Assembly: GCA_030849805.1 (NCBI GenBank)
Contig: JASANZ010002186.1
Location: 1 to 64,000, forward strand
Direction: 5' to 3'
From: Sergeia podlipaevii
Lineage: Eukaryota; Euglenozoa; Kinetoplastea; Trypanosomatida; Trypanosomatidae
Length of the DNA: 64,000 bases
This document shows positions 29,931 through 56,300 of this stretch, piece by piece. A model generated the notes under the pieces. That model was given only the letters and a program-made list of their open reading frames with translations. It was not told the DNA's origin and did no database searches. The position numbers and the translations under genes are program-made. Every line of letters starts with the position of its first letter. Position 1 is the stretch's first letter.

Positions 29931-32900
29931 ATGTACGTAGACAGTCTTGTCGGGGAACTTCGGGGTGCTCTCAACGATAGCGTGGATGCAATCAGCGCTA
30001 TGCTACAGCGGAAAGACTTTAGCGACGTTATTGTTCTTCTTGAAGATATTGAACAGCGTCTGAGTAGCCACACTGCACATTTCAAGCAAACTCATGTGAG
30101 CACTAGCTGGCTGTGGGATGTGTTGTGTTTCAGGGCATCTACACCTACCGATAAACAGCAAGCTACACTTCTGAGCATTCTGCCTCGTCTGAGGGAGAAC
30201 GTTTGTGTCTCTAGCAACCGCGAGGATTCTAAAGCACTCAAGAAGTGTCTGTCCACTTTGCTGTTCGCTCTACAGTATCCATTTCGCAGGTGCGTGGCCA
30301 CCGTGCAGTTGGCGCGTGCTCGGGATGTTGTCTGGGATGTATTCATGTCGTTGCATCATTTGCACAAGCACACAGATTCACAAGCAGAGTGCCTCAGTGT
30401 CTTGCGATCTATTATTGCCCCAGAAACCTTTTTAGCAGCAGCGCAGGGCGGAGCAGAGCCTGATTCGCAAGACGCGGCCATTTCTGGAGTGCAGTTTGGT
30501 GTAGACGAGATGGCAGGGGTTTGTGTGTCAGTGTGTGAAAGAAAGGCTGCGGGTGGAGGTCGACTCAAGTCGATGGCGATGCAACTGTTAGGGTGCATGA
30601 GTGCGCGTTACCCGGTAGATATGTCTGCAAAGGCAAGCCGTGTTTTCGAGTGCTTCAAGTGTGTGGCTAGCCGCCTAACGGAGCAAACAGACGTAGAACA
30701 GATGGTTGGCGAGGGTTTTTTTTTAGGGATAAAGGACTACCTTAAAGTATTCCCACTAAGCTACACAGTAGCTTCGGAGCGTGCGTTCGTTGTCACGTTG
30801 CATCAGATGGTAAAAAACGCCATGCTACTCGCAGAGAGTACTTCCAACTATCGATTTTGTAAGTCAGCACTCGTCTTTCTCCGTCACCACGCTACTACCA
30901 CGCTTGCAGAGTGTATTGCGAGTGATGCAGAGGATTACTTTTCCATCTTACAGCGCTTGTGGGAGCATAAAAACGTGGATGTTCATAGGGCTGCATATCC
31001 AGCCACCGCAAGCTTTCTGCAAGCTCTCTCACAGCAGTTGAGCGAATTGTCGCCAGCGGCTTCCATATTTCCTGCACCAGCAGCGGACACCAGCCTAGTC
31101 TTAGGAAGGTTGCTAGACAAATTGGAGGCTACTCTGCGCTTTCAAGATAGCACTCGATCCCAACTTGCCTTTGCGCTAGTGGCGTGCGGTTACTTGGCAC
31201 GGCCACTTCGCTACCGTTGCGGCGATGTGGCGCTTTTAGCGGTATTTGATGGCCTAGCAGAGAAATGTGATGTTGTTTTTTCTGCTGCTGCTGCTGCCAC
31301 CGCCACCGCTGCTACACCTGCATACGTCGCAGGCGCTGATGGAAGCGTGGATGCGCAGCCATTAGTTGGAGGCGATGATATCGTTCGCCTGATCCCTCAG
31401 TTCCTTACCGCGTTCGCTTGCTTCTTTTTAGAAATTCCCTACATTTCCCAGTCGGGGTTGAAGTCAGCCCAGACAGTCGTCGGCACCGCACTCACGCTTT
31501 TGCCTCATCCAGCCTTTTTTGAGCGCATTAGAGACGTTACTGCACCGGCACTGCTGAAGTTGCTTGTGTCGGTTCAGTATCACGGTGCAGTGACGCAGAT
31601 GTCGCTGTACTCGTGGGTTTGTGAGCGCACACTACAACTAGTAGCGGGTGAGAAGAGTGCGTGCGAAAGTGAAGATGATAGCGGCTCGACTGATGAGGGA
31701 GAGAATGGTGAACCGGACTTGTTCACGGAGGAGCCCAATGAGGCACAGTACTTGCAGCAACTAGCTGGCAACGCGCACACTGTTTATGCTCGCTTGTGGT
31801 TGCGCCTACTCTCGTCGCAAGCATGCGAGGATCGAAGCTGGGGATATCCTTGGCAGTCTGTCGATGTTGCAAGGCCCCAGGCACAGCTTCGGGTGACATT
31901 CCAGCGTTTGCTGCTGCAGACCGTGAGGGGGTTGGACTTGGCAGTGACGGCAACGAGCGGAGGGGAAACGCTCCCGCTTCATGTGGTGCTGATGCTAGGC
32001 CAGGGGGCAATACAACCGCGATGCCAGGCGGACTATCAGGCATTTTTGCGCCTCGTTGCGCTTCACACTGCCATTGCCCGTTCACTTTGGTGTCAAATGG
32101 ACAATGCGAGCGCCGCAGCGGAGATTGCGCTGGGTGACAGACTAGGGGAGTGGCTCGTGCATGTGCTGCGTATTGCAAAACTTTATCCGCATGTATCAGG
32201 GTTTCTTGTACTGAGCTATACTGCTCTACAGGTGGCACGTGGGAGTGCAAGTTTGTCTGATGGGGTACAACGGACTCTCATGGATGCTGCGGCTGTCTGC
32301 GAGCAGCGTCTGCAAATCTGCACCGATGAGCTGCTGTATCAGTGTTGTATGTTTCTTCTCGTGGTATCTCGTTGGATCCCCGCCAGTCCTCAGGCGCTGG
32401 TAAAGCCGCTTACTATTGTGCTCGCGTGCCACAGCGGTATTATGGCGGATGTTGAGACTGTTAATGCGGAGTCCGCGCTTGCGATACTATTTGACTGTGT
32501 TGAGCACCAACCCCATGCAGCAGCGGTTCTTGTGCCGTCTCTCCTCGCGTCTGCTTCAGTCATGGAGCAGCCTCGCGTGCGAGATCGTCTGTGTCTTTTA
32601 GCAGCCAAGTATGGAATCGAAATATCAGCTGCCCTCCTTAGAGGCAGTGTTGCCGTCCACGCAAAAAGTGTCGTTGGCCCTGCTTATGCACCACAGCGTC
32701 CGCGCTGGAAGGTACGGGAGGTGTTGTTAAAGCTGCCGTTTGGTGGCACTGAAATTCATTTCCCTGTTGTTAGACTCCTGCCCAAGGTTGTGCATCTTAG
32801 TCAGTATGCCACTGAGCGCACAACACGCACCACAAGCGCCGAGCTCCTCCACTTTGCCGTCACGTGGATGCTGGGCAATGGGGCTGGGTGCGAAGATGTG

Positions 32901-35900
32901 TTTCCGGCTATGGTGCAGCTCGCTGCCCAAGGCACCGATGATGGAGCAGTGGCCGCAGAGATATTTCACGCGTTACTCTTGCAGTGTGCACGTTGGTTTG
33001 GCGGCGCTGGGAAGGTGAAAGAAGCCGAGACACTTGAGCGCGTCTTGCTGGAGCAGCTGGGTAGCAGCAGTGGAGCAGTACGCCGCGTGGCGTCGGAGGC
33101 GCTAGTGGAGTATGTCCGCTGGAGCAGCAAAAGGCACCCAAGTGGCAGCAGTCGAACTGGAGTGTCCCAAGGCGTACGAGTGTTGCTGCTGTCTGAGTCT
33201 ATCCGGGCACGTCTGGGGGCTGCTACGTTTCTCCATCAATTACTAGCTGCTGTTCGGGCTGAAAGCGCCGCCATGCTAGTTGGTGACGCGCACTCTCTGG
33301 TGTCCGCCTTGGCTAGCGCTGCTCGCCTTTCACTGTGCCAAAGTAATAGTGAAGAATTTGGTGTGATGAGGGAGCTTAGCACATGCATGCGGCTCCTTTG
33401 TGAATTTTATCAAAGCACCAGCAGCGGCTCCCGCTCCAGAGAGGCTCTGCAAAAGCTGTCAGTCAAGTCTGCCGAGGACGTAGAAGCAGCGCTGCTCTGT
33501 GCATGCAAGGAGACTGCCTGTATAGCAAATGAGACAGCGATAGCTGCGGCGCGACTGCTAGGGGTGATTTCTAGTGTGCGTACAGACGTGGGACAACACT
33601 GGCGGTGGTCCCACAATCACGGCCCGCTACTGAATCAGTTGATGGCAACCGGTACGGCTGCAGAGGAAGTACAAGGTGGGCTGGCGTTGTGTAGCGTCCT
33701 GATCGAGGCCGCTGTACTGCCGCCTCCACCAGGGACAGCTGGAGCTGGATCCAGCAAGAGGTCACATCCAGACAGCATAGAGGGGCCCACTGTGCACGAT
33801 GCGGTACGTTTGCTTTTATGTAATGCCAGTGCGGCAATTGCAAAGTATGCCATTGCGTTGAGCTTGCAGGATGCGAACGGTGCTGTTGGTATGCCCGAGT
33901 TCTTTTATAGTCTCCAGCGCTTCCTGCGCAGTGTCATCCAGCAACAAAGGGACCGAAGTTCATCTGATAAATCGACGTACATGAAGCGAGAGGTGGCCAG
34001 TCATCTTGTATCTTCTTCGCTGTTCAAGTGCACGGCTGCCATGCTGCTTGCCAGTGAGACCACAGGAAGCATCGGACCTAGTAGTGAGCGTCGTGACTGT
34101 GCTATAGCGCTGTTAGAGTCCGTGTCTGTCTTGCTGCCATGGCACGCTGAGGCGGATAGCATGCGCAGTCAGTTAGTAGATGCCCTGAGGGAAAAACTGC
34201 CCCTTTTTTGCCGACAGAGCACAAAGGAGGGGTGCATGGACATGTTTTTAGCCTCTCCAATTTCTGTGAGTGACTCGGTGGCGGACGTGGCAGCATTGAC
34301 TAGGCTGCCTTTTGTTAATGCAGATGGGCGTACAGACCCAATCAACGTGTGGACAGCCGTTGTGGGTCTCCCTCCTTTCTCCAGCGTTTCTCGGGCAATG
34401 GCTGCTCTCACGCAATTTTTGCATGATGCCGTCCGCGACTCCCGTGTCGCTCTCACTCATCGAGGAGCCTTGGTGTGTCGGTCAGTGGCGCTGCTGTTAG
34501 TGGGAGGTGGTGGAGTAGGTTTTGGCGACCTGCTGACTGCCGTATTGGGCAAGGATGAAGAAAGGGAGGACAGTGTTGCTCCGGGACGTGTGCGCTTTGC
34601 GGCGGCGACCCGGGAGGTGGAGGAGGAAGAAGAAGAAGAGAAGGAGGCGACCCAGGGAGACTGCAAGGACAGAGTTGGCTTCAGAGTAGCTACTGACGTG
34701 GTGCTCGACATGTGTTCTACAATACTGACTGAGGCGTGTGAGTCGGAGCGCTATGTTGCCTTGGCTCAATATGTTCGGGACATTGCCAGCGCTGTGACAG
34801 CCTCGATTGTGTATCAGGATAAGAGGAAAAGGGCAGACTCGATGTCCGCGGACTTGGGAAACCCATCGGGTGGTTGGGATTACGAGCAAAACGTGCCTGT
34901 TCTCTTGCTTCGGCATGCATTGCGTCTGCAGGTGAGGTGCTTCTCTGTAGAACACATGAGGCACGCGCTTGTGGAAGCCACGACGGCTGTCGTTTTGGCT
35001 CCAGTACATGTCGACATGGCTGTGGTGAGCCTCCAGCTCCAGATGATGGAGGCGTGCTGGCGGATTGATAGTGCTGGCGCGTGGAGTTGTGGCGCACTGC
35101 GCACGGCAGCAGTTGATGTCGTGAAGCGCGCTTGCACGTCGGAGGCGTGGACAGGAAGGCGGCACGCGCTCCTCAGCAGTCGTGACGCTACCCGCTTATT
35201 AGTGCTCAGTTCTCGCGTATACCGGGCACTTCTGGGCGGTGATGCACGCACTGAGGATTTTCCCGAGATAGCTAAACTCGTTGCTTGTGGAGTGCATACT
35301 ATGGAATGTATCGTGAGAGAAGAGCTTCCTCTTGACTGGCGCGAGGTTGGCTCTGAGACGCTGCAGTCTAGCAACTACCACGCCGTCGTTCAGGGTCTCA
35401 CAGTGATGTGTGGCGCTCTCACGCCTCGAAGCACGGCTGCCTTGCGCACGATGCTTCCCCTTCTTGCGCAGACAGACCTGCCACACAGCGCTGCGATAGC
35501 GGCAACGGTTGATACCGCGCTTCACAGCCTCCGCTCGGCAGAGTTACTGGCCCTTTGCCAAGAATGCATGCAGCTACAAAAGGAGGCTCTTCCGCGGCAA
35601 ATGTGGTGGGCCGCGACGTACCGCATCAGCCTCCCTGCGCTGCGCTCATTTCCAGTGGACATTCGCGTTAGCTTCTTTGTGGAGCATGTGTCCTACTGGG
35701 TGAGGGAATCAGAAGAAACCCCTATCATCAGCTGTCATAAGCAGTCAAACGCGCTGACACTTCTGGAAACGATGTATCGGCTGACCGACGCGACGGATCT
35801 TAAAGGGCGGATTAATGACGCCTACACAGGGCGTGAAGGATCGGCGAACACAGGAAAGGAGCTTACCTTGGCACTCATCAAACTGTGCAGCGCCGCACGT

Positions 35901-38900
35901 GTGTTTGCTTATCCTGGTGGTGCTAATTCGACAGCGGAAATGAGCGAATTAAGGGCAGAGGCACGAATGGACTTACTCAGCTACCGGCAGGCAGCTTACA
36001 GGTGTCTTGTTGCGGTTCTCACCGCTACTCAGGATAAAGAAGCTGTTTTTGTAAAGCTACTGCTTGACTCTAGTAATGTTGATATGTGGAACAAAATTAT
36101 CAACACGACGTGTGCACACGAACTTAGTATTGAAACAAATTTTCTGCGCGTAGCGGAAGTTGTGGCCAAGGAGAGCAGTGACTGGGAGCTGAAGGATCTG
36201 AGGCCCACGTCTTCTAAGCGTGGCGCCAGACTCACAGGAGCTCCAGGTGCTGCGGAAGGCATTACTTTGGATTCTTGGTGGCTATCTATGCAGCCTATTG
36301 ACTATCACTCTTCAGTTGGGCCCACCAATGGTGAGTCAGCAAACAGCTTTATGAATCATGCGTTGCACTCTCAACGGCTAAGCGCACAAAGACGGCAGAA
36401 CCCACTGCTTTCACACTATGGGTGGTCTCAGCGCACCATGCCGCTGCCAAGTTCTTCGTTTACCTCGATGATTGACATGGATGAAGTTTGGCGCAGTACG
36501 TGTAGTGGTGTGCTGTTTTCTCTAATTGACTTCATGATCGACCGCTTTGGCTGTAGCCATCCCATGTCGAGTGCACATGGTGTCGCGGCTACGTCACTGT
36601 GGGTGCGGGAAGTGGAGCAGTTGCTGGCATCAGACAAGATCCACACTAACGCACGATTAGTTGTTTTGCGTATGGTACAGCTGCGCAGGGGCTTCTTTGC
36701 ACAGCATGCTAGCATTCTGCGGGACGCTGTTATTGCAGTCGCCACGCATCCTTCAGTGTCAAGTGGGGGTCTGCTTCACTACGTCGCAAGAGATGTAGTT
36801 GTAATGGTGATGGGCTGGGTACGGGACGGATACACGAGTTGGTCTGAAGGCACGGGAGCATATAACTTGGTGCGCTTTCTTGTGCATGCAGTGCCTCGTA
36901 CAGACTCGGCGTACGTGGGGCGGTGTAACATTGAGCTGTTTAAGGCGCTTTGGGAGCAGGTCGCAACAGTGCCGTGCCTGCGTCCATCTGACCTTGCTCT
37001 GGTGTTGCGGTCAGACGCGAGCGCAGTGCCTGTATGTGTGCAAATGTGTGGCGTCATTGCTGACTCTGGCACCTGCCTAGCCACTCTTGCTGCTCCCACT
37101 ACTGTAGCCCCATCAGAAGTTCGTGAGTTGTATCAAGAACTGCTCAAGTACATAGAGGGGCAAAAAGGAGATGGAGCGCTGGCTGCGGCCGAAGTCGTCG
37201 GAATGGAACTACGTGCATTGCAGGCACATCAAGCGTCACCACAAGAAAGTGGTAGCGGCAGCAGTAGCCGTGTGATTGCCTCTGCTGTTATGGAGGACCT
37301 TTACGTACTGCTCAGGGAGGGCACGGTTCGCGTGCTGATGAAGCTGTGGAGGAGTGGCAACAGCAGCACTGCAGCTTTAAAGGCGCTTCGCGTAGTAGAG
37401 ACGTACAACTCATCAGTGCTGTCTGATTTTCTTCCAAGCACGGTGTTTGCGAACTTTGCCAGCAGTGGTAGTGATACGCAGTTGTTAGTGATGGATGTTT
37501 TGGGGTGTGCGCCTAAGCAATGTGCGCGTGTGTATGACATACTTCATGCGCAATTTGCAGGATCGCTTACCCGGTATAACGTAGCGGTACGAAACGCTCT
37601 CTACGCACTTCTTGCTCTTCTTGTGCCCCATCTCAGCGTGGATGCCTTACGCAAAACGTCTAGCTTATTTCTTACGGAGGAGGCGCTTCGGCACATGAGC
37701 GGGACGGAGGATAGTCGCGTTGCCTTCTATAAGCTGTGCGTGGCAGTACTATCAAATACTTCAGGGCACAAGTTGGGAGAAGAGAAAGCAGAAGGAAGCG
37801 GCCAGAGAGCCTTCACACAACCGGTGTACGACATACTCATCAGTTCAGGACTGCAGGATTCCTCCTTGTTTGTGCAAGACGTTGTATTAGAATACATGGA
37901 CAAGTATGGCTGCTCTGAGCACGCAGCGGAGCGCCTTGCGCAGCTATTGGATGCACTGAAAGTGAGCAAATGTGATGCGTGGCTAAGGCACGCGGCTGTG
38001 CTACTCCTCTCGCTGTCGCGCCGCTCTCGTTCATTTGACGATTGCTCATTTCTGTTCTCAAAGCCGCTGGTTGAGTGCAATTTCACTCGCATGGTGCTGG
38101 GCTCTAAGTCTCAGGCCTCGGTCTCTAGGCAGGCACCACTCTTTTCTCAAAGTGTCGCAGAGGCGCTGCGCGGTGTGGGTGGCGTCACTGCTGCTGCAGT
38201 CAATTCCATTACCTATGTGGGTGCCAGTCAGCACTCCAGTGCGGTAGGCGCGCACTCCTTACAGACTTCAACACAAAGCTCGGTTGGCGGTAGCAGCGCC
38301 GCCGCTTCATGGCGCCGCGGTCGGCCTTTGCCTAGCTCCCTGCAAATGGACAGCGCAGGGCAGTTCACGGCGCTCGCTATGGGCCGGAGCTCTCCTAGAA
38401 GCCAAGTGCGGTCTGGCCTTATTTTTACACGAAGCGGCGAGAGTGTGTCAGGGGCACGCGACTTTACACTGCGAAGACTGCAAGCGTTGCCAGAATCTGC
38501 GAAAGTGCTCAAGTACATGCAGGCTGCGGCTCGCAATCTCACTGACCGAGTGGAGGAAGAGAGGAAAAAGGCGTCTCTGCAGGCATCACAGGTGATTGTG
38601 TTCAGGGACTACAGAGAAGGAGAAGTGCCTGACATTCAGGTGTCGCTTCAAGGGTTTGTGACCCCGCTGCAGGCACTGTGCTTACGTGACAGTGAAGTAG
38701 CTTCGCTGGTGTGTGCCACTTTGGCAGAAGATATACTTGCTGCGATGTCAGCGCCAGCCACCGCACAAGGAGTCCCCCACGCCCCGTCGCCAGTACCGTA
38801 TTTTGCAAGGGATGCTGGCAATCGAAGTTTGCCGCCCGATGCTGACAGTGCTCGGCTGTCGGCGTGTCTTCGTGATTTAGTTGAGCGCACTGTGGTGGAC

Positions 38901-41900
38901 GCTCCGTCCTCTGCAGCATCTACATTTTTTACGCGAGAAGCCGCGTTTCTTTATAGAAAAGCAGGAGGCAGCATCACCACTGCACAGTGCCAGGCACTGG
39001 TGGCTGGAACGCGAGGTGGCGAGAAAGAAGAGAGCAACGACGTCAGCCACGAAGGTGCTGTTGTGCAGCTCGTGGACGATGTTATGGCGACTATTTGTAG
39101 GAAGGATGAACGTGCTGACGGCAAGTCAAGTGAAGAGGAAGAAGAAGGTGCTGAACGCGAACAGCGCCGGGTTGGGTGGCTGGCATACAGCAACGCCCTC
39201 CAAAGTGCGGGAGACGCTGATATGTCCGCAATTGCAATAGGAAAGTTTCTCAGCAAAGAGGATGCGGGTGTTTTCACGGAAGCGCTACGCATGAGCGAGG
39301 ATGGTGCATTTGCCTTAGAGGCAGAGAGGCTGCAGAGCTGGCTAGAGAGCCATGGAAACTCAGCTCCAGGTGTCCGAGATGTGCTCAGCCATCAGCTCCG
39401 CGTTGCCAAGCACGCACTGCTGCAGTGGGAGTCAATGGCTGACACCTTCCCGTCAGCAGCAACCTCGATGACAGAATGGTGCATCGCTACAAGAAGTGAA
39501 GCTCGACTTGTGATACCCATCCTTGTACGCGGCAGCACGCACCAAGACAAGGCCAGCATACCTGGCACACTGCAAGCGGTAATGGAGAAGGCATGGCCCG
39601 CTGAGTGGAGCCAAGTCTTGCTAGGTCAAGGGCGTTGGACGGAATGTGAGCAATATGTGAGCTCAGTGCTGCCTCGTGTGTTGGCCAGCAGCGACGGCAA
39701 TGGAATCAAGTACAGAGAGGCCTTTAGGCTAATGCTTTCGCTGGATGCCGCGTGCGTACTCTCGTCTGTGGAGCGGGATCAACCACGGGCGATGGAGTCA
39801 CTACGACAGTATATCGCCACCGTTCCACTAGCTGCGACGGAAGGTGTTCATATAGACGCACATGTTGTGGATGAGGCACTATGGGTGCGGGCATGTGTAG
39901 ATGCGGCCCTCGGCGACCGATATTCTGAAAAGTTTTTTCCTAATGATTTGGAGGCGCTGCGCAGCGCTAGTAGGAGTGCGCAGCAGTGTATATGCCAGCG
40001 CGCGGGTGAGTCTCTGCTTAGCACTCGTGAGTGGAATGGAGCGGTGAGAACGTTGCTTGCACACGCGCACAAACTGGGAAGTTCCGAGGCGCACCTGTGG
40101 CCACTTGCGGCACGTGCGCGCGCCTTTGATATTGCGTATAGTGCCAAGTACTATCGCGCGCCGTCGTCATCTCCTCAGGAGCAACTAGAGAAGCTGGTGC
40201 TTCGCTACAGCACTCGCCGTGATAGTCTAACTGAGACAGATCGGCGTAAGCTTGGGGCTGACCTCGCCCTATGCGCCATCACACTTGGGCTGAACCACAG
40301 GGGCAGCGTAAATCGTCCATCGGACCTGTACGCAGAGGCAAAAAAGCTTGCTGAATGCACAGAGGAAGGGTTTATCGAGAACGATCTTGTGTTGCTTGAT
40401 GCCATTGATCACATTCTATCACACATTACGCAAGGAGCGTGGCACCAGCACAAGGGTACTGGCAGCCACGATAGTGACGCGGTAGCGGGGTGCTGGAGGA
40501 TGTTTGCCTCAACAATGGTTCGTTGTCTCCATGCACATGGTGGGACCTCGGCTGTGGAGAGTAGGACCGCCGCTCCCATCACACGTGTGCCTAGGCTGCT
40601 GCAATTATTTGACGTTCTCGGCAAAGTTGCAGGCGGGGAAGATGCTGAGTGGGCCGCCACACTTGAATCCCTGGCTGCATTACCAGTAACGGTGTGGCTG
40701 CCATGGACATCGCAACTAATCAGCGCAGTGCTGCGGACGGGGCACCCGTTGCTGGCGGAGGTGCTGGCGGGGCTCGCGGAGGCACACCCGCAGAGTGTTT
40801 ACTTTCCTTATCACTGCGCTACGGAGGAACTTCGCAATTTGGAAGTGGCGTGTGCATCACCCGCTGCGGCTCGTACTGCAGGAGCAGCGAAGGTAAGCAG
40901 TGTCACAGACCGGGATGCGCCGATAAGACTGGGTGCAGCACTCAATAGATTGAGACAAACTCTTCTCTTTAGTAGCGAGCTTGCTGCAGTGCGTGCCTTT
41001 GCCTCTGAACTGCACAAGCTACACGATCCCGAGCAACGTCTTATCACATGGATGCGTGCTATCTCTGGCGAGCTTCAGCAGTACTCTACTAGTAATGCCA
41101 ACGACAGAGAGCACTACGATCGAGCGCAGGAGCTTTTTCTCAAAGCATGCGCGGACTGTCTTGATCCGAGTCAGTGGCAAGAGACGGAGGTGGTCAATCG
41201 GCGGTATGCTGCACTCGGAGCGAGTGAGAACGTGAAGGAACTCTTTTGCAAAGATGGTGTCCTCACAAAGGACCCCACAGCGTTCTCAAAGGCATTTACG
41301 GAGGCCTTAAATCGTCTGAAAAAAGGAGGTGCTGAAGAGGCACACAAGGCACTCTATGCGGCAGATACCATGCTACTGGAGAACTACAGTGCGAGGTTGT
41401 CGCAATGCTTTGAAGTGGCAGTAGCTAAGGGAGAGCAACAGATACTGCTTCCCATACAGCCAGTCATGCTGCTGCACACATCGAGCGCCGAGCCGCTCAA
41501 GGAATGCGTTTTTGAGGCTGCGTCAAGCATGAAGGTAATGAGGTCAAAGGAGCGGCCAAAGCGACTAACGCTGTTCACTTCACGCGGGCCACATATGTTC
41601 CTGGCCAAAGGCGGAGATGACTTGAGGCTTGATCAGCGCATTCAAGAAATATTTGTTGTATTGAACGGATTTCTGCTGTCTTCATCGTCTTCTTATGTGG
41701 TCAGGGACTCCTCTACACGCTGCTGGAGGCGTCATATTATACGCACCTACTCTGTGATTCCGGTGTCACGGTTCATGGGGTTGGTGGAGTGGGTGCCTGA
41801 GACTGAGGTGCTAAGCAGTATCATTAGCAATGCCCGCAGTGACTTCGACACTATTTTTAGTACAGCTAGCGCAGCGTTCCGTGTGGGATTTCCAAGTGTT

Positions 41901-42728
41901 GAGGACCACTTAAAATCGTACGTTAATAAGCCCAACACGCGTGGTCAGTTTTCGAGTTGGTTTGACAACATTGTGCGGAAGATTCCGTCTGATATGCTGG
42001 AGCACGGTCTCATGGAATTGGCGCCAAGTCACTGCGGGTGGTATGCGGTACGCAACGCCTTCTTGCAATCGAATGCCGCGGTCTCTATTGCATCGTATGT
42101 GCTCGGAGTGGGGGATCGCCACTTGAGCAACTTTCTTGTCGACAAATTTACTGGAGAATTGATTGCGATTGATTTTGGTTACGCTTTTGGTGAAGCAGTG
42201 CGCAAGCTCCCTATCCCTGAGCTGGTCCCCTTCCGGCTTTCGCCCCAAATGCACTATGTGCAAGGGGCACTTGGCTCCGCCGTTACCGAACGCCCGATGC
42301 AGCACGTACTGCATGTTTTGCGATCCTCTCGGAGCATAATCGAGGGTTTGGTGGCGTCCTTTGCGTATGAGCCGCTTGTGCAGTGGAAGTATGAGAGCAT
42401 TTATGCAGGTCAGAGCAGTGATGAGGCTGCCACTTCTAGGATTGTGTCTGTATCGCGTAAGCTGAACCTTGAGTGCCCGGGTACTCTCCTCCTTGAGGAC
42501 CTGAAAGCTAATCGGTTTGTAGCAAAGGGCAAGAGGAGCCTTCTTGAAGCGATCCAAACTGTAGTAGAGGCAGATGGGAGAAGGCGTGCTGAGCATAATC
42601 CAGCAGAGACTGAAATGGCAAATGATAATAACTTAGCAGAGCAGGCTTTTGTGAACTACTTGGTGGATCTTGCAACAGATAGCAATGTCCTTGGGCGAGC
42701 ATATAGTGGTTGGCAGCCTTTTTTCTAG
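29931..42728 (+). CDS. DNA-PKcs-like giant PI3K-related kinase
   Basis: DNA-PKcs is the Ku-recruited kinase of non-homologous end joining. The protein has 4265 residues in one open frame, close to human DNA-PKcs. It consists of a very long helical-repeat region, a FAT-like region, and a C-terminal kinase domain with FLAKGGDDLRLDQRIQEIF (ATP-binding Lys near residue 3892), GVGDRHLSNFL (catalytic loop, about 4057-4067) and IAIDFGYAFGEAVRKLPIPE (DFG, about 4077-4083). The FATC end is LVDLATDSNVLGRAYSGWQP plus FF. The spacing and words of the catalytic and FATC blocks match DNA-PKcs rather than ATM, ATR or TOR. Acidic insertions occur near residues 579, 1562 and 3066, and an alanine run near 450. 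Confidence 0.92.
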   Translation: MYVDSLVGELRGALNDSVDAISAMLQRKDFSDVIVLLEDIEQRLSSHTAHFKQTHVSTSWLWDVLCFRASTPTDKQQATLLSILPRLRENVCVSSNREDSKALKKCLSTLLFALQYPFRRCVATVQLARARDVVWDVFMSLHHLHKHTDSQAECLSVLRSIIAPETFLAAAQGGAEPDSQDAAISGVQFGVDEMAGVCVSVCERKAAGGGRLKSMAMQLLGCMSARYPVDMSAKASRVFECFKCVASRLTEQTDVEQMVGEGFFLGIKDYLKVFPLSYTVASERAFVVTLHQMVKNAMLLAESTSNYRFCKSALVFLRHHATTTLAECIASDAEDYFSILQRLWEHKNVDVHRAAYPATASFLQALSQQLSELSPAASIFPAPAADTSLVLGRLLDKLEATLRFQDSTRSQLAFALVACGYLARPLRYRCGDVALLAVFDGLAEKCDVVFSAAAAATATAATPAYVAGADGSVDAQPLVGGDDIVRLIPQFLTAFACFFLEIPYISQSGLKSAQTVVGTALTLLPHPAFFERIRDVTAPALLKLLVSVQYHGAVTQMSLYSWVCERTLQLVAGEKSACESEDDSGSTDEGENGEPDLFTEEPNEAQYLQQLAGNAHTVYARLWLRLLSSQACEDRSWGYPWQSVDVARPQAQLRVTFQRLLLQTVRGLDLAVTATSGGETLPLHVVLMLGQGAIQPRCQADYQAFLRLVALHTAIARSLWCQMDNASAAAEIALGDRLGEWLVHVLRIAKLYPHVSGFLVLSYTALQVARGSASLSDGVQRTLMDAAAVCEQRLQICTDELLYQCCMFLLVVSRWIPASPQALVKPLTIVLACHSGIMADVETVNAESALAILFDCVEHQPHAAAVLVPSLLASASVMEQPRVRDRLCLLAAKYGIEISAALLRGSVAVHAKSVVGPAYAPQRPRWKVREVLLKLPFGGTEIHFPVVRLLPKVVHLSQYATERTTRTTSAELLHFAVTWMLGNGAGCEDVFPAMVQLAAQGTDDGAVAAEIFHALLLQCARWFGGAGKVKEAETLERVLLEQLGSSSGAVRRVASEALVEYVRWSSKRHPSGSSRTGVSQGVRVLLLSESIRARLGAATFLHQLLAAVRAESAAMLVGDAHSLVSALASAARLSLCQSNSEEFGVMRELSTCMRLLCEFYQSTSSGSRSREALQKLSVKSAEDVEAALLCACKETACIANETAIAAARLLGVISSVRTDVGQHWRWSHNHGPLLNQLMATGTAAEEVQGGLALCSVLIEAAVLPPPPGTAGAGSSKRSHPDSIEGPTVHDAVRLLLCNASAAIAKYAIALSLQDANGAVGMPEFFYSLQRFLRSVIQQQRDRSSSDKSTYMKREVASHLVSSSLFKCTAAMLLASETTGSIGPSSERRDCAIALLESVSVLLPWHAEADSMRSQLVDALREKLPLFCRQSTKEGCMDMFLASPISVSDSVADVAALTRLPFVNADGRTDPINVWTAVVGLPPFSSVSRAMAALTQFLHDAVRDSRVALTHRGALVCRSVALLLVGGGGVGFGDLLTAVLGKDEEREDSVAPGRVRFAAATREVEEEEEEEKEATQGDCKDRVGFRVATDVVLDMCSTILTEACESERYVALAQYVRDIASAVTASIVYQDKRKRADSMSADLGNPSGGWDYEQNVPVLLLRHALRLQVRCFSVEHMRHALVEATTAVVLAPVHVDMAVVSLQLQMMEACWRIDSAGAWSCGALRTAAVDVVKRACTSEAWTGRRHALLSSRDATRLLVLSSRVYRALLGGDARTEDFPEIAKLVACGVHTMECIVREELPLDWREVGSETLQSSNYHAVVQGLTVMCGALTPRSTAALRTMLPLLAQTDLPHSAAIAATVDTALHSLRSAELLALCQECMQLQKEALPRQMWWAATYRISLPALRSFPVDIRVSFFVEHVSYWVRESEETPIISCHKQSNALTLLETMYRLTDATDLKGRINDAYTGREGSANTGKELTLALIKLCSAARVFAYPGGANSTAEMSELRAEARMDLLSYRQAAYRCLVAVLTATQDKEAVFVKLLLDSSNVDMWNKIINTTCAHELSIETNFLRVAEVVAKESSDWELKDLRPTSSKRGARLTGAPGAAEGITLDSWWLSMQPIDYHSSVGPTNGESANSFMNHALHSQRLSAQRRQNPLLSHYGWSQRTMPLPSSSFTSMIDMDEVWRSTCSGVLFSLIDFMIDRFGCSHPMSSAHGVAATSLWVREVEQLLASDKIHTNARLVVLRMVQLRRGFFAQHASILRDAVIAVATHPSVSSGGLLHYVARDVVVMVMGWVRDGYTSWSEGTGAYNLVRFLVHAVPRTDSAYVGRCNIELFKALWEQVATVPCLRPSDLALVLRSDASAVPVCVQMCGVIADSGTCLATLAAPTTVAPSEVRELYQELLKYIEGQKGDGALAAAEVVGMELRALQAHQASPQESGSGSSSRVIASAVMEDLYVLLREGTVRVLMKLWRSGNSSTAALKALRVVETYNSSVLSDFLPSTVFANFASSGSDTQLLVMDVLGCAPKQCARVYDILHAQFAGSLTRYNVAVRNALYALLALLVPHLSVDALRKTSSLFLTEEALRHMSGTEDSRVAFYKLCVAVLSNTSGHKLGEEKAEGSGQRAFTQPVYDILISSGLQDSSLFVQDVVLEYMDKYGCSEHAAERLAQLLDALKVSKCDAWLRHAAVLLLSLSRRSRSFDDCSFLFSKPLVECNFTRMVLGSKSQASVSRQAPLFSQSVAEALRGVGGVTAAAVNSITYVGASQHSSAVGAHSLQTSTQSSVGGSSAAASWRRGRPLPSSLQMDSAGQFTALAMGRSSPRSQVRSGLIFTRSGESVSGARDFTLRRLQALPESAKVLKYMQAAARNLTDRVEEERKKASLQASQVIVFRDYREGEVPDIQVSLQGFVTPLQALCLRDSEVASLVCATLAEDILAAMSAPATAQGVPHAPSPVPYFARDAGNRSLPPDADSARLSACLRDLVERTVVDAPSSAASTFFTREAAFLYRKAGGSITTAQCQALVAGTRGGEKEESNDVSHEGAVVQLVDDVMATICRKDERADGKSSEEEEEGAEREQRRVGWLAYSNALQSAGDADMSAIAIGKFLSKEDAGVFTEALRMSEDGAFALEAERLQSWLESHGNSAPGVRDVLSHQLRVAKHALLQWESMADTFPSAATSMTEWCIATRSEARLVIPILVRGSTHQDKASIPGTLQAVMEKAWPAEWSQVLLGQGRWTECEQYVSSVLPRVLASSDGNGIKYREAFRLMLSLDAACVLSSVERDQPRAMESLRQYIATVPLAATEGVHIDAHVVDEALWVRACVDAALGDRYSEKFFPNDLEALRSASRSAQQCICQRAGESLLSTREWNGAVRTLLAHAHKLGSSEAHLWPLAARARAFDIAYSAKYYRAPSSSPQEQLEKLVLRYSTRRDSLTETDRRKLGADLALCAITLGLNHRGSVNRPSDLYAEAKKLAECTEEGFIENDLVLLDAIDHILSHITQGAWHQHKGTGSHDSDAVAGCWRMFASTMVRCLHAHGGTSAVESRTAAPITRVPRLLQLFDVLGKVAGGEDAEWAATLESLAALPVTVWLPWTSQLISAVLRTGHPLLAEVLAGLAEAHPQSVYFPYHCATEELRNLEVACASPAAARTAGAAKVSSVTDRDAPIRLGAALNRLRQTLLFSSELAAVRAFASELHKLHDPEQRLITWMRAISGELQQYSTSNANDREHYDRAQELFLKACADCLDPSQWQETEVVNRRYAALGASENVKELFCKDGVLTKDPTAFSKAFTEALNRLKKGGAEEAHKALYAADTMLLENYSARLSQCFEVAVAKGEQQILLPIQPVMLLHTSSAEPLKECVFEAASSMKVMRSKERPKRLTLFTSRGPHMFLAKGGDDLRLDQRIQEIFVVLNGFLLSSSSSYVVRDSSTRCWRRHIIRTYSVIPVSRFMGLVEWVPETEVLSSIISNARSDFDTIFSTASAAFRVGFPSVEDHLKSYVNKPNTRGQFSSWFDNIVRKIPSDMLEHGLMELAPSHCGWYAVRNAFLQSNAAVSIASYVLGVGDRHLSNFLVDKFTGELIAIDFGYAFGEAVRKLPIPELVPFRLSPQMHYVQGALGSAVTERPMQHVLHVLRSSRSIIEGLVASFAYEPLVQWKYESIYAGQSSDEAATSRIVSVSRKLNLECPGTLLLEDLKANRFVAKGKRSLLEAIQTVVEADGRRRAEHNPAETEMANDNNLAEQAFVNYLVDLATDSNVLGRAYSGWQPFF

Positions 42729-53338: not shown

Positions 53339-56300
53339 ATGACCACGCTTGTGACGACCCGCGAGCAGCGGCGAAGAAAACTGGGCGTGGACTGCCCAGA
53401 CCGCATATGCTGGAAGAACTGGGAGGCTGGCGAGGAATATGCACGCAAACTTGTCATTAAGAACGTCGAGGGCCGCGCGCAGACCATTTCCTATCGATTG
53501 CCAGAGCGCAAGACTACCTTTCTGACCCCCTACCCCGAGCCTGTGATGCTGAGCAGCGGCATGTCATTTGAGCTAGAGATCCGCTTCTGTCCGACGGAGG
53601 TAGTGGAGATCAACGATCTGCTGGAGATTGCGGTGGAGGGCCGTGGTTCCTTTGTGGTCTATCTAGAGTGTCTCACGCCATTTGCCAAGATGTCTGTACC
53701 CAAGTCCTACGACTTTGAGTTCTGCCCGGTAAGCGTGACGGCTAGCACAGAAAAGAAGATAGAGAACACGGGCACGGTGCCGCTGGACTTTTACTGGGAG
53801 GTCCCCCCGCCTTTTTCTATTGTACCGCCTTCTGGGTCGCTAGCCCCTGGAGAGTCTATGCGTGTGACCATGTACTTTACACCGCGTGAGGCGTGTGCAG
53901 TCATGTGCCAGGCAGTCTGCAAGATGGAAAACCTTGATGAAGTAATTGCAATTATGCGGCTGTCAGGCATTGGCAAGTACCCACACGTGCGCTTTGCTTA
54001 CGAGGACCCTGCTGTGCTTGGTGTGCCCACGCCAGTTACTATACCGGGGGAGAAGGGCACGAAACCTGCAACTCTGGCTAGTGGTAGCAAGGATGGACTA
54101 TCAGGACTACCCATTCTGCCACTCGCCTCTTCCAGCGCACAGCTTGACTTTAAGGATGTGATAGCGGGAAGCTCCCCAACGACTGAGTTTTTTCTTGAGA
54201 ATCCTTCACCCGTGTCTGCACAAGTTACACTTAAGAGGCACGACGACGCGCTCACGTGTCCCTTCACAGTAGCCCCTGCTTCGTGCACCATTCCACGCGG
54301 TGGACGCCAGAGATTTCGCATTACGTACAAGGCCAAAGATGCGGGGACGCTTCACAGGAACCGCTTTGAGTGGAAGGCACTTGCCGGCAACACTATTAGC
54401 CTGGAGGTCAGAGGTGCCGTGGTGGGCCCGGCCGTGAAGGTGTCAACAAGCCACATGAACTTTGGTGATGTAAATTTAGAGCAGATGCCCCCAGAGAAGG
54501 AACTCACACGCTACGTGCAGCTCAAGAACTATTCCGACGTGGAGACGCATTTCCAGCTTCTGTCCACTTCCCCTGGAGCTGTCTTTTACTGCGAGCCCTG
54601 CGTGGGCAGCATTGAGGCGAAGGGAAGTGTGAAGGTGAAGGTGTGCTTCAGACCCACATCGGCCATCAACTACCTCAGGCGGCTTGTCATCCTTGTTGAG
54701 AACGCAGCAAGCGCGCTCTATGTGGACGTGTTTGGCTCTGCCTACGACGCCTACTCCCGGCCCCTCCCTTTTGACCTTGCGCAGGTGGAGGCGTTTAATC
54801 TCCGCATGGAGCGTGGACTAGGCCTCTGCACACCTGACGAACTGGAAGTTATTGCTACCGCAGTGCTGCGCGAGCGCAACCCCGTCACTGAAGAGGACAT
54901 GGTGACTCAAAATGTGTGGCGCTCCGTCGCACAGGACGCCAACAACAGCACTAGTGGTACGTTCCTGCAGAAGCGAACTGGTAGACTACCGTATGCGCAG
55001 TTGCTGCCAGACGAAGCAGCCCCTCCTACAAGACCCTTCTCGCTGGAGACCTCCACGCTTGTGTTCGGTGGCCACAACGCCTCTACACAGAGCGTGTCTG
55101 TGGCCAACTCCTCAGAAGCCATGGCAACGGCGGTGTGGTGCTTGCCCGTTGGCTCGCCTTACACAGTGACGCCGGGGCAGCAGGACATCGCACCTGGCGG
55201 CATGGCAGTGTTCCAGGTGATGTACCAAGGTAATGCATACGCAGCTGGAGGGAATGAGTTTGGTGCGGCAGCGTCCTCTCTGGCATTTCACGCCCAGTAC
55301 TTGGAGTGTTACGTGAACTACAAGCAAATGCGCTCCTTTCGCCTGGTGAACGAAAACTCCTTTACTCCTCCGCACTGTCTGACGCTGCAGTGCTGTCAGG
55401 AGCGCAAGAACCCCGAGGCAAAGCTGGCTGTCGGTGCTGTCGGCGGCGGTGGTGGGGCCTCGCTGGCAGCGCTAACAAAGCTTGAGTCCTCATTAGCCTT
55501 GCCACCTAGCAGGGTAGGGGACAGTAGCTACCAAGTGGTGGCGATCGAAAACACCAGCGACGTGGTTCTACTGTACGAAGTTCGAGATATCGTAGTGCAT
55601 GACATGAGCGAGAAGGTGTGCGACGATGTTACGGTGGTGGTGACTGCGCAAGATGGCACGACAATGACGACGACACCGGCGGCGAGCGCGAGCAGCGGCG
55701 CAGTTGTGATGGCGGCACGGCAGCACCAGAAGATTCAAATGATGGAGGACTCTGCGGAGGTGTTCCGCTGCTTTCCCCCCAGTGGGCTGCTACATCCCCA
55801 TCAGCGGGTGCTGATGTTGATTGAGTTCCGACCTCATACGCTTGCACGATATGAGGCCGAGGCCACGATTGCGTTCAACAACAACAACGAAGACACGGCA
55901 GTGATGCTTCTGAAAGGAGAGAGCTGTATCCCGAGGCTGACGCTCGAGGATTCCAAGCGCAAGCTCACCTTTCGCCCGACTTGCATCACGGGCGAGACAA
56001 GGCGCGAGATGCGACTGCTCAACCCCACCGCCATCCCCATTGCTTTTCAGTTTTGTCCCTGCCAGGAGCTCCTCAGCGTCGTCAGGTTCGATCCCCCTAG
56101 TGGCGTGCTGGAGGCAGGACAGCGGCTGGTGGCTGCGGCATATTTTAGTCCCGAGCAGCCGCGCGTGTACGAAGGAAGAGTGGCAATGGTGCTGCGCGAT
56201 GACCGAGAGCGGCCTAGTGTGCCCATATGGCAGTGCTTGGCACGCTACTGCGGCGCGTCCAGTAGCTCCACGGACAAGGCTGATGCGGAGATGATGATGA

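What the first reader, a model, noticed from the sequence alone, without database searches (positions are those of the whole stretch)
29931..42728. Intact DNA-PKcs-like kinase in a trypanosomatid
The 12.8-kb frame is unbroken and keeps the ATP Lys, catalytic loop, DFG and a FATC end matching DNA-PKcs. Trypanosomatids are generally held to have Ku but to lack the XRCC4/Ligase IV machinery of end joining. A maintained DNA-PKcs suggests a role outside classical joining, for example telomeres, microhomology joining or rRNA maturation.
Basis: partly seen in the sequence, partly recalled or inferred. Interest (0 to 1): 0.75.

Follow-up and report, generated by a model that had tools for sequence, protein, structure and literature searches.

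The report
Trypanosomatid keeps DNA-PKcs and ligase IV
This genome of an unnamed trypanosomatid (a relative of Leishmania and Trypanosoma) carries an intact gene for the giant DNA-break kinase DNA-PKcs and, against the usual view of its group, also genes for the Ku proteins and DNA ligase IV, the core of ordinary end-joining repair.

Summary
In detail: 29931-42728 (+) is one open frame of 4265 codons encoding a DNA-PKcs, with Pfam domains N, CC3 and CC5, intact kinase residues, FATC and the YRxGxxPD synapsis motif. It falls in the DNA-PKcs clade, apart from this genome's ATM-, ATR- and TOR-type kinases. Best reading: a retained classical end-joining core. XRCC4 and XLF were not found, in searches without a positive control; no second BRCT was recognised in the ligase. 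DNA-PKcs in Leishmania, Endotrypanum and Crithidia is already published. New, within the papers searched, is ligase IV in trypanosomatids and DNA-PKcs in one outside Leishmaniinae. The two Leishmaniinae DNA-PKcs seen have an eroded synapsis region, and the deposited L. donovani protein lacks the DFG aspartate.

The parts
29931..42728 (+). DNA-PKcs gene, 4265 codons plus stop
30576..31283 (+). DNA-PKcs_N domain (residues 216-451)
   Evidence: Pfam PF20500, E 2.6e-9
35625..36821 (+). DNAPKcs_CC3 (residues 1899-2297)
   Evidence: Pfam PF08163, E 2.1e-12
36867..38759 (+). DNAPKcs_CC5 (residues 2313-2943)
   Evidence: Pfam PF19704, E 2.1e-22
38109..38405 (+). stretch with five [S/T]Q sites (residues 2727-2825), aligned in part with the loop that carries the ABCDE autophosphorylation sites in animals
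   Evidence: alignment; clustering only weakly above chance (24 of 500 shuffles reach it)
38610..38633 (+). YRPD synapsis motif, YREGEVPD (residues 2894-2901)
   Evidence: motif as defined in PMC8549938 (passage)
41598..42389 (+). PI3/4-type kinase domain (residues 3890-4153)
   Evidence: Pfam PF00454, E 4e-43
41607..41609 (+). ATP-binding lysine K3893
   Evidence: K in 127 of 127 aligned kinase rows
42114..42131 (+). catalytic loop DRHLSN (residues 4062-4067)
   Evidence: D, H and N each in 127 of 127 rows
42171..42179 (+). DFG motif (residues 4081-4083)
   Evidence: aspartate in 126 of 127 rows; the exception is the L. donovani protein P0003
42642..42725 (+). FATC domain (residues 4238-4265)

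Best explanation
The gene is the orthologue of DNA-PKcs and most likely works as in other eukaryotes: Ku70/Ku80 binds a broken DNA end, the Ku80 C-terminal arm recruits DNA-PKcs, two DNA-PKcs molecules hold the ends together, the kinase phosphorylates itself and partners to release the ends, and ligase IV seals them. Shown here by sequence: DNA-PKcs domains, kinase residues and synapsis motif; Ku70; Ku80 with its DNA-PKcs-binding domain; a ligase IV with intact catalytic motifs, all in one genome assembly. Inferred: that the parts form a complex, that an unrecognised XRCC4-like partner exists, that classical end joining is active, and that the system was inherited from the kinetoplastid ancestor and lost piece by piece in other trypanosomatid lineages.
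For: DNA-PKcs Pfam domains; none of them was listed at E up to 0.01 in the stretches read of the other six FATC kinases of the genome (L023 only 2704 of 5349 and L025 2607 of 3079 codons of the open frame). PIKK tree of 36 rows: DNA-PKcs separates from ATM/ATR/TOR at 100/99, window row with Novymonas, L. donovani and unnamed P0007 at 100/100. YRxGxxPD present in the window protein and in 0 of the 6 other PIKK stretches. Ku80: Ku_PK_bind E 5e-20; tail EEVLDDTLLDLIS against human EEGGDVDDLLDMI (PMC8549938 passage), compared by eye. Ku70 on C54. LIG4: best PDB match ligase 4, E 2e-83, against 7e-33 for ligase 3 and 7e-28 for ligase 1; tree groups it with Novymonas P0126 and P0122-P0125 (SH-aLRT 100, quick search, no bootstrap); KYDGER and motif V intact; the first 13 Foldseek matches of its model are, by chain or title, ligase IV.
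Against: XRCC4 (PF06632) and XLF (PF09302) gave no match at E up to 10, without any positive control. In the ligase Pfam gives no BRCT at E up to 10; a first BRCT aligns with relatives, no second one was recognised. Outside kinase and FATC the protein is only about 8-23% identical to the coral and fish proteins. The DNA-PKcs model has low confidence (mean pLDDT 60.3) and its PDB matches mix DNA-PKcs with mTOR; the ligase model's TM-scores are low (0.21-0.30 over the query for those 13). Ku_PK_bind is also kept in T. cruzi, which is reported to lack DNA-PKcs, so it does not prove a working DNA-PK. No expression, binding, selection or repair data.
Confidence: 0.8

Rival explanations
1. One reading: DNA-PKcs is kept for a role outside classical joining (telomeres, microhomology joining, rRNA maturation), with Ku as partner.
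For: Trypanosomatid Ku is tied to telomeres in the literature (PMC8377203 passages; PMC6635534 section); Leishmania keeps a DNA-PKcs while reported to lack Lig4; XRCC4 and XLF not detected here.
Against: A ligase IV with intact catalytic motifs is in the same genome, and the synapsis motif and kinase residues are intact, unlike in the two Leishmaniinae sequences seen.
Confidence: 0.12
2. A decaying relic: the frame is open but the protein no longer does repair.
For: Strong divergence of the HEAT arms; the L. donovani homologue has lost the DFG aspartate and, like the Novymonas one, the YRPD region.
Against: 4265 codons open with positive coding score in all 11 segments; active-site, FATC and YRPD residues kept.
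Confidence: 0.05
3. The end-joining genes come from a contaminating free-living kinetoplastid in the assembly.
For: Draft assembly of 576 contigs from an unnamed source.
Against: DNA-PKcs and LIG4 group with sequences of named trypanosomatids and not with the unnamed P0004-P0006 or P0127-P0132; one gene each found for Ku70, Ku80, ATM-type, ATR, LIG1 and LIG4, though the tool calls its counts lower bounds for large families.
Confidence: 0.02
4. It is another PIKK (ATM, ATR, TOR, SMG1) misread as DNA-PKcs.
For: The kinase part also matches mTOR (E 8e-36) and ATR (2e-28) in the PDB.
Against: Tree, CC3/CC5/N domains, YRPD, and separate ATM-, ATR- and TOR-type genes in the genome.
Confidence: 0.01

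Closest known systems
DNA-PKcs (PRKDC), animal type
   Same: Domain order DNA-PKcs_N, CC3, CC5, kinase, FATC; active-site residues; YRxGxxPD motif; Ku partner with PK-binding domain
   Different: 17-20% overall identity to the plant, fungal, animal and amoeboid rows; Pfam FAT not listed; weak [S/T]Q cluster; XRCC4 and XLF not found
Putative DNA-PKcs of Leishmaniinae (L. donovani P0003, Novymonas P0002; LmjF.36.2940 in PMC8377203)
   Same: Closest named relatives (39-40% in kinase/FATC); same clade at 100/100
   Different: Both lack YRPD and have an eroded region before it; P0003 has G for the DFG aspartate; the window protein keeps both
DNA ligase IV
   Same: Catalytic motifs, alignable first BRCT region and the stretch after it; tree position
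   Different: No second BRCT recognised; long low-confidence C-terminal extension
End joining in Bodo saltans (inferred from Cas9 repair products, PMC9544060 passages)
   Same: A kinetoplastid in which non-homologous end joining is reported as likely active
   Different: Free-living relative, not a trypanosomatid; 'ligase', 'Ku70' and 'Ku80' do not occur in that paper's text

Membership tests
DNA-PKcs | DNA-PKcs HEAT regions (Pfam N, CC3, CC5) | tested here: met
   all above Pfam cut-offs; PF20502 not listed
DNA-PKcs | PIKK kinase with intact ATP Lys, catalytic loop, DFG, and C-terminal FATC | tested here: met
DNA-PKcs | YRxGxxPD synapsis motif (PMC8549938) | tested here: met
   YREGEVPD at residue 2894. 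94 of the 121 proteins P0001-P0121 have the exact motif; of the 27 without, 9 are ATM/ATR/TOR-type by their Pfam domains, so 18 others lack it too and the motif is not strictly invariant in this set
DNA-PKcs | Phylogenetic grouping with DNA-PKcs, not ATM/ATR/TOR | tested here: met
   SMG1 was not in the tree
DNA-PKcs | DNA- and Ku-dependent kinase activity | not testable with these tools
   needs protein
Ku70/Ku80 | Ku_N and Ku beta-barrel in both; Ku80 with PK-binding domain | tested here: met
   (two genes); PDB best matches Ku80 and Ku70
DNA ligase IV | Groups with LIG4, not LIG1 or LIG3 | tested here: met
   (LIG1 and LIG3 in the tree by one long row each)
DNA ligase IV | Catalytic lysine motif and motif V | tested here: met
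DNA ligase IV | Tandem BRCTs with XRCC4-binding linker | tested here: inconclusive
   first BRCT region and following stretch align and are modelled with confidence; Pfam lists no BRCT in the window protein at E up to 10 but some in relatives; second BRCT not recognised
Classical NHEJ system | XRCC4 and XLF | tested here: inconclusive
   no match at E up to 10, no positive control
Classical NHEJ system | Artemis | tested here: inconclusive
   one DRMBL/SNM1-family gene, subtype not resolved
Classical NHEJ system | End joining in cells | not testable with these tools
   experiment

The most novel reading that the evidence does not exclude
Classical end joining was not lost at the base of trypanosomatids. 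Its core survives in some lineages (complete but for unseen XRCC4/XLF here, in part in Novymonas) and has been dismantled step by step elsewhere: LIG4 and DNA-PKcs gone in Trypanosoma, LIG4 gone and DNA-PKcs decayed towards a kinase-dead scaffold in Leishmania. The family would then be a graded natural series showing what each part does, and Ku and Leishmania DNA-PKcs would be leftovers or reuses of a recently lost pathway.
Probability: 0.6. Interest if true: 0.75.

Novelty: new member of a known kind. Interest (0 to 1): 0.6.

Why it matters
That trypanosomatids have Ku but no ligase IV is treated as a rule: PMC6635534 states it for all examined species except the Ku-less jaculum lineage, and a 2025 review repeats it for T. 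cruzi, T. brucei and Leishmania (PMC12578213 passage). It frames the question why Ku is retained and how these cells repair Cas9 cuts. A trypanosomatid with Ku, DNA-PKcs and ligase IV together breaks the rule as a family-wide statement, moves at least some losses to later, repeated events, and makes 'what is Ku for without ligase IV' testable by comparing species that have and lack it.

Tried and rejected
The ATP-dependent ligase search gave six matches in five genes; I asked whether two of them were LIG4 (note), and searches showed one LIG4-type and one LIG3-type gene. Horizontal origin of LIG4 was considered and judged unlikely, because the tree nests it among kinetoplastid-like rows and, outside these, a transcript (P0136) that I take for Euglena from its name. 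The [S/T]Q cluster as evidence for ABCDE regulation is weak (24 of 500 shuffles). My Ku80 tail pattern was written after seeing the tails and is description only: it matched 10 of 23 proteins, several misses being truncated models. A link between LIG4 and bacterial symbionts was considered, since Novymonas and Angomonas carry symbionts (PMC8472099 passage); no bacterial 16S was found in this assembly (0 matches, but only 5 of 364 first-look candidates were scored), so it is not claimed. A Pol theta gene was sought (six matches in five genes); for the 819 aa read of the best one the best PDB matches are bacterial Pol I (E 1e-52), with Pol theta behind (1e-42); the other four were not followed up. 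Naming the organism failed: no assembly of 23.4 Mb is in the 21-species table read (PMC10441713, section 7 part 1), and text finds in PMC8472099, PMC12278014 and PMC8312217 gave none. dN/dS could not be computed.

Rows left out: one search used 35 of the 51 LIG4 hits (P0157-P0172 left out) plus three ligases of this genome; one search used 23 of the 26 Ku80 hits (P0196-P0198 left out) plus the window's; one search used 36 of 127 kinase segments, chosen by hand to span the families; one search listed 120 of 204 hits and only those were used; searches scored only the 7989 and 7993 candidates sharing most words.

Full report
What is there. The frame at 29931-42728 on the + strand is one uninterrupted gene of 4265 codons. 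Chance cannot explain it (log10 probability about -80); the codon-usage score supports this frame alone and is positive in all 11 segments, though lower than in the six other PIKKs, which were part of the reference set. Pfam finds DNA-PKcs_N, CC3 and CC5, a PI3/4-type kinase and FATC; Pfam FAT and PF20502, which many relatives carry, were not listed. The three DNA-PKcs domains were not listed at E up to 0.01 in the stretches read of the other six FATC proteins of the genome; two of these were read in part (L023 2704 of 5349, L025 2607 of 3079 codons of the open frame). The closest PDB sequences are DNA-PKcs (E 1.7e-68; mTOR next at 8e-36). ATP lysine, catalytic-loop D, H and N, and DFG aspartate are all present. 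The protein also has YREGEVPD at residue 2894. A review (PMC8549938, passages) calls YRxGxxPD invariant in DNA-PKcs of vertebrates, invertebrates, oomycetes, amoebae and plants and places it at the synapsis interface. Here the exact motif occurs in 94 of the 121 proteins P0001-P0121 and in 0 of the 6 other PIKK stretches of this genome. Of the 27 proteins without it, 9 are ATM/ATR/TOR-type by Pfam and 18 are not, so its absence is not unique to Leishmaniinae.

Which PIKK. In a tree of 36 kinase/FATC segments DNA-PKcs separates from ATM, ATR and TOR at 100/99. The window protein sits with Novymonas, L. donovani and unnamed P0007 at 100/100, inside an eight-row clade at 98/96; P0007 is a long branch. 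The other FATC genes of this genome are ATR (L025), an ATM-type (L023) and four TOR-type genes (L022, L024, L026, L027) by tree and domains. SMG1 was not in the tree. A model of residues 3101-4265 has low confidence (mean pLDDT 60.3); its three best PDB matches are DNA-PKcs, mixed below with mTOR, so it adds little.

The partners. Two Ku genes were found. The one on C559 (763 aa) has Ku_N, the Ku barrel and Ku_PK_bind at E 5e-20, and matches Ku80 in the PDB. The one on C54 (917 aa) matches Ku70. The Ku80 protein ends EEVLDDTLLDLIS; the human DNA-PKcs-binding motif is EEGGDVDDLLDMI (PMC8549938 passage). The likeness is by eye: the PDB alignment of the C-terminal 164 residues stops nine residues before the end. 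Unnamed P0173-P0175 end DDDLMDLIY, EDDVMDLIV and EDDLMDLIE; five Trypanosoma rows end in V-L-N-M-I plus one residue; L. major and L. mexicana in D-W-L-x-E-I-Q. Keeping Ku_PK_bind is not by itself telling, because T. cruzi keeps it (PMC11936186 passage) while reported to lack DNA-PKcs.

Ligase IV. An ATP-dependent ligase search gave six matches in five genes. One, on C570 (1192 aa), matches ligase 4 far better than ligase 3 or 1 (E 2.4e-83, 6.5e-33, 6.8e-28). The LIG4 search returned P0126, named 'DNA ligase-like protein' of Novymonas esmeraldas (42%), and P0123 (54%), whose organism name was cut off in the listing. I infer P0123 to be Angomonas deanei from the style of its name and its contig length of 771,299; the A. 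deanei Ku80 P0182 lies on a contig of 774,942, the chromosome N50 published for that species (PMC8022732 passages). In the tree the window ligase, P0122-P0125 and Novymonas form a clade at SH-aLRT 100 inside larger clades with unnamed rows and P0136, which I take for Euglena from its transcript name; this was a quick search without bootstrap, with one long row each for LIG1 and LIG3. K-Y-D-G-E-R and motif V are intact, the first BRCT region aligns, and it is followed by D-H-Y-Y-E-P-C-T-L-E-S-L-R-H-S-L, aligned with the stretch after BRCT1 of animal LIG4, where the XRCC4-binding linker lies (that last point is recalled). The model (mean pLDDT 71.9) folds that region with confidence, followed by a long helix; the rest of the C-terminus has mostly low confidence and shows no second BRCT that I could recognise. 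The first 13 Foldseek matches are, by chain or title, ligase IV, with low TM-scores.

What was not found. XRCC4 and XLF families gave no match at E up to 10, but neither rang in any control genome, so this does not show absence. One DRMBL gene of the SNM1/Artemis family and two neighbouring Pol X genes are present.

What the literature says. [quoted passage not shown] its species table was not seen. PMC12578213 (passage) says T. cruzi, T. brucei and Leishmania have Ku but not Lig4. PMC8377203 (passages) reports a putative DNA-PKcs in Leishmania, Endotrypanum and Crithidia and says most kinetoplastids, including T. brucei and T. cruzi, appear to lack it. Lees-Miller et al. 2020 is not held. The searches listed 15-25 papers each out of 44 to 720 that met the terms; among those listed, none reports ligase IV in a trypanosomatid by title and start of abstract. 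PMC3616161, PMC8022732 and PMC8406214, genome papers on Angomonas, Strigomonas and Novymonas, gave no passage on ligase IV or end joining in text finds. PMC9544060 (passages) reports likely non-homologous end joining in the free-living kinetoplastid Bodo saltans, which fits an older origin. PMC12153298 (passage) notes that Blastocrithidia lacks both Ku proteins.

The pattern across relatives. The window genome has Ku70, Ku80, DNA-PKcs with DFG and YRPD, and LIG4. Novymonas has Ku80, DNA-PKcs with DFG but no YRPD, and LIG4. The L. donovani DNA-PKcs entry has neither YRPD nor the DFG aspartate. This looks like stepwise erosion, but it rests on one deposited Leishmania protein cluster and two outside LIG4-bearing genomes with a known or inferred name. 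Protein searches cannot prove absence.

Organism. The genome is 23,386,757 bases in 576 contigs and unnamed. The closest named relatives of its Ku80 are Angomonas deanei (50%), Phytomonas (49%) and T. cruzi (43-44%), ahead of Leishmania (39%) and of any non-trypanosomatid named (28% or less). Ku80, LIG4 and DNA-PKcs all lie outside the sampled Leishmaniinae rows, and Ku80 outside the five T. cruzi-type rows (which genera are Leishmaniinae is partly recalled). Its exact position was not resolved; the Ku80 tree is weak at the fork that matters (46/83).

Verdict. The most likely function is DNA-PK in a retained classical end-joining core (0.8), with a non-joining role as the main rival (0.12). 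The kinase is a new member of a known family. The surprise is the company it keeps.

Noticed in passing
P0003 (L. donovani DNA-PKcs): The DFG aspartate is replaced by glycine in the deposited sequence (the only one of 127 aligned kinase rows), and the YRPD region is eroded; Novymonas keeps DFG but not YRPD. A kinase-dead DNA-PKcs in Leishmania is possible.
   Followed up: partly
L016:2999-6853 (+), genome contig C214: A 1285-aa ligase whose best PDB match is DNA ligase 3 (E 2.6e-117; ligase 1 at 8e-43, ligase 4 at 2.5e-34), with weak BRCT matches and a weak match to CHD1L. I recall no ligase 3 described in trypanosomatids, but made no literature search for it.
   Followed up: partly
L021:2284-3756 (-) and L021:4624-6261 (-), genome contig C544: Tandem ligase genes with an N-terminal DUF4379-type zinc motif, presumably the kinetoplast ligases k-alpha and k-beta (label recalled).
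   Followed up: no
P0123: Ligase IV on a 771-kb contig, probably Angomonas deanei (inferred).
   Followed up: partly
L026:1541-9688 (-), genome contig C569: A TOR-type kinase with a PDZ-like stretch at residues 1433-1482 (Pfam PDZ_6, E 3e-5, below the curated cut-off).
   Followed up: no
window 53339-58789 (+): An 1817-aa CFAP65-type flagellar protein with many Ig-like/ASH domains, downstream of the kinase on the same strand.
   Followed up: no
genome contig C236, 10527-13293: Two neighbouring Pol X (DNA_pol_B_palm) genes, probably the known polymerase beta pair (recalled).
   Followed up: no
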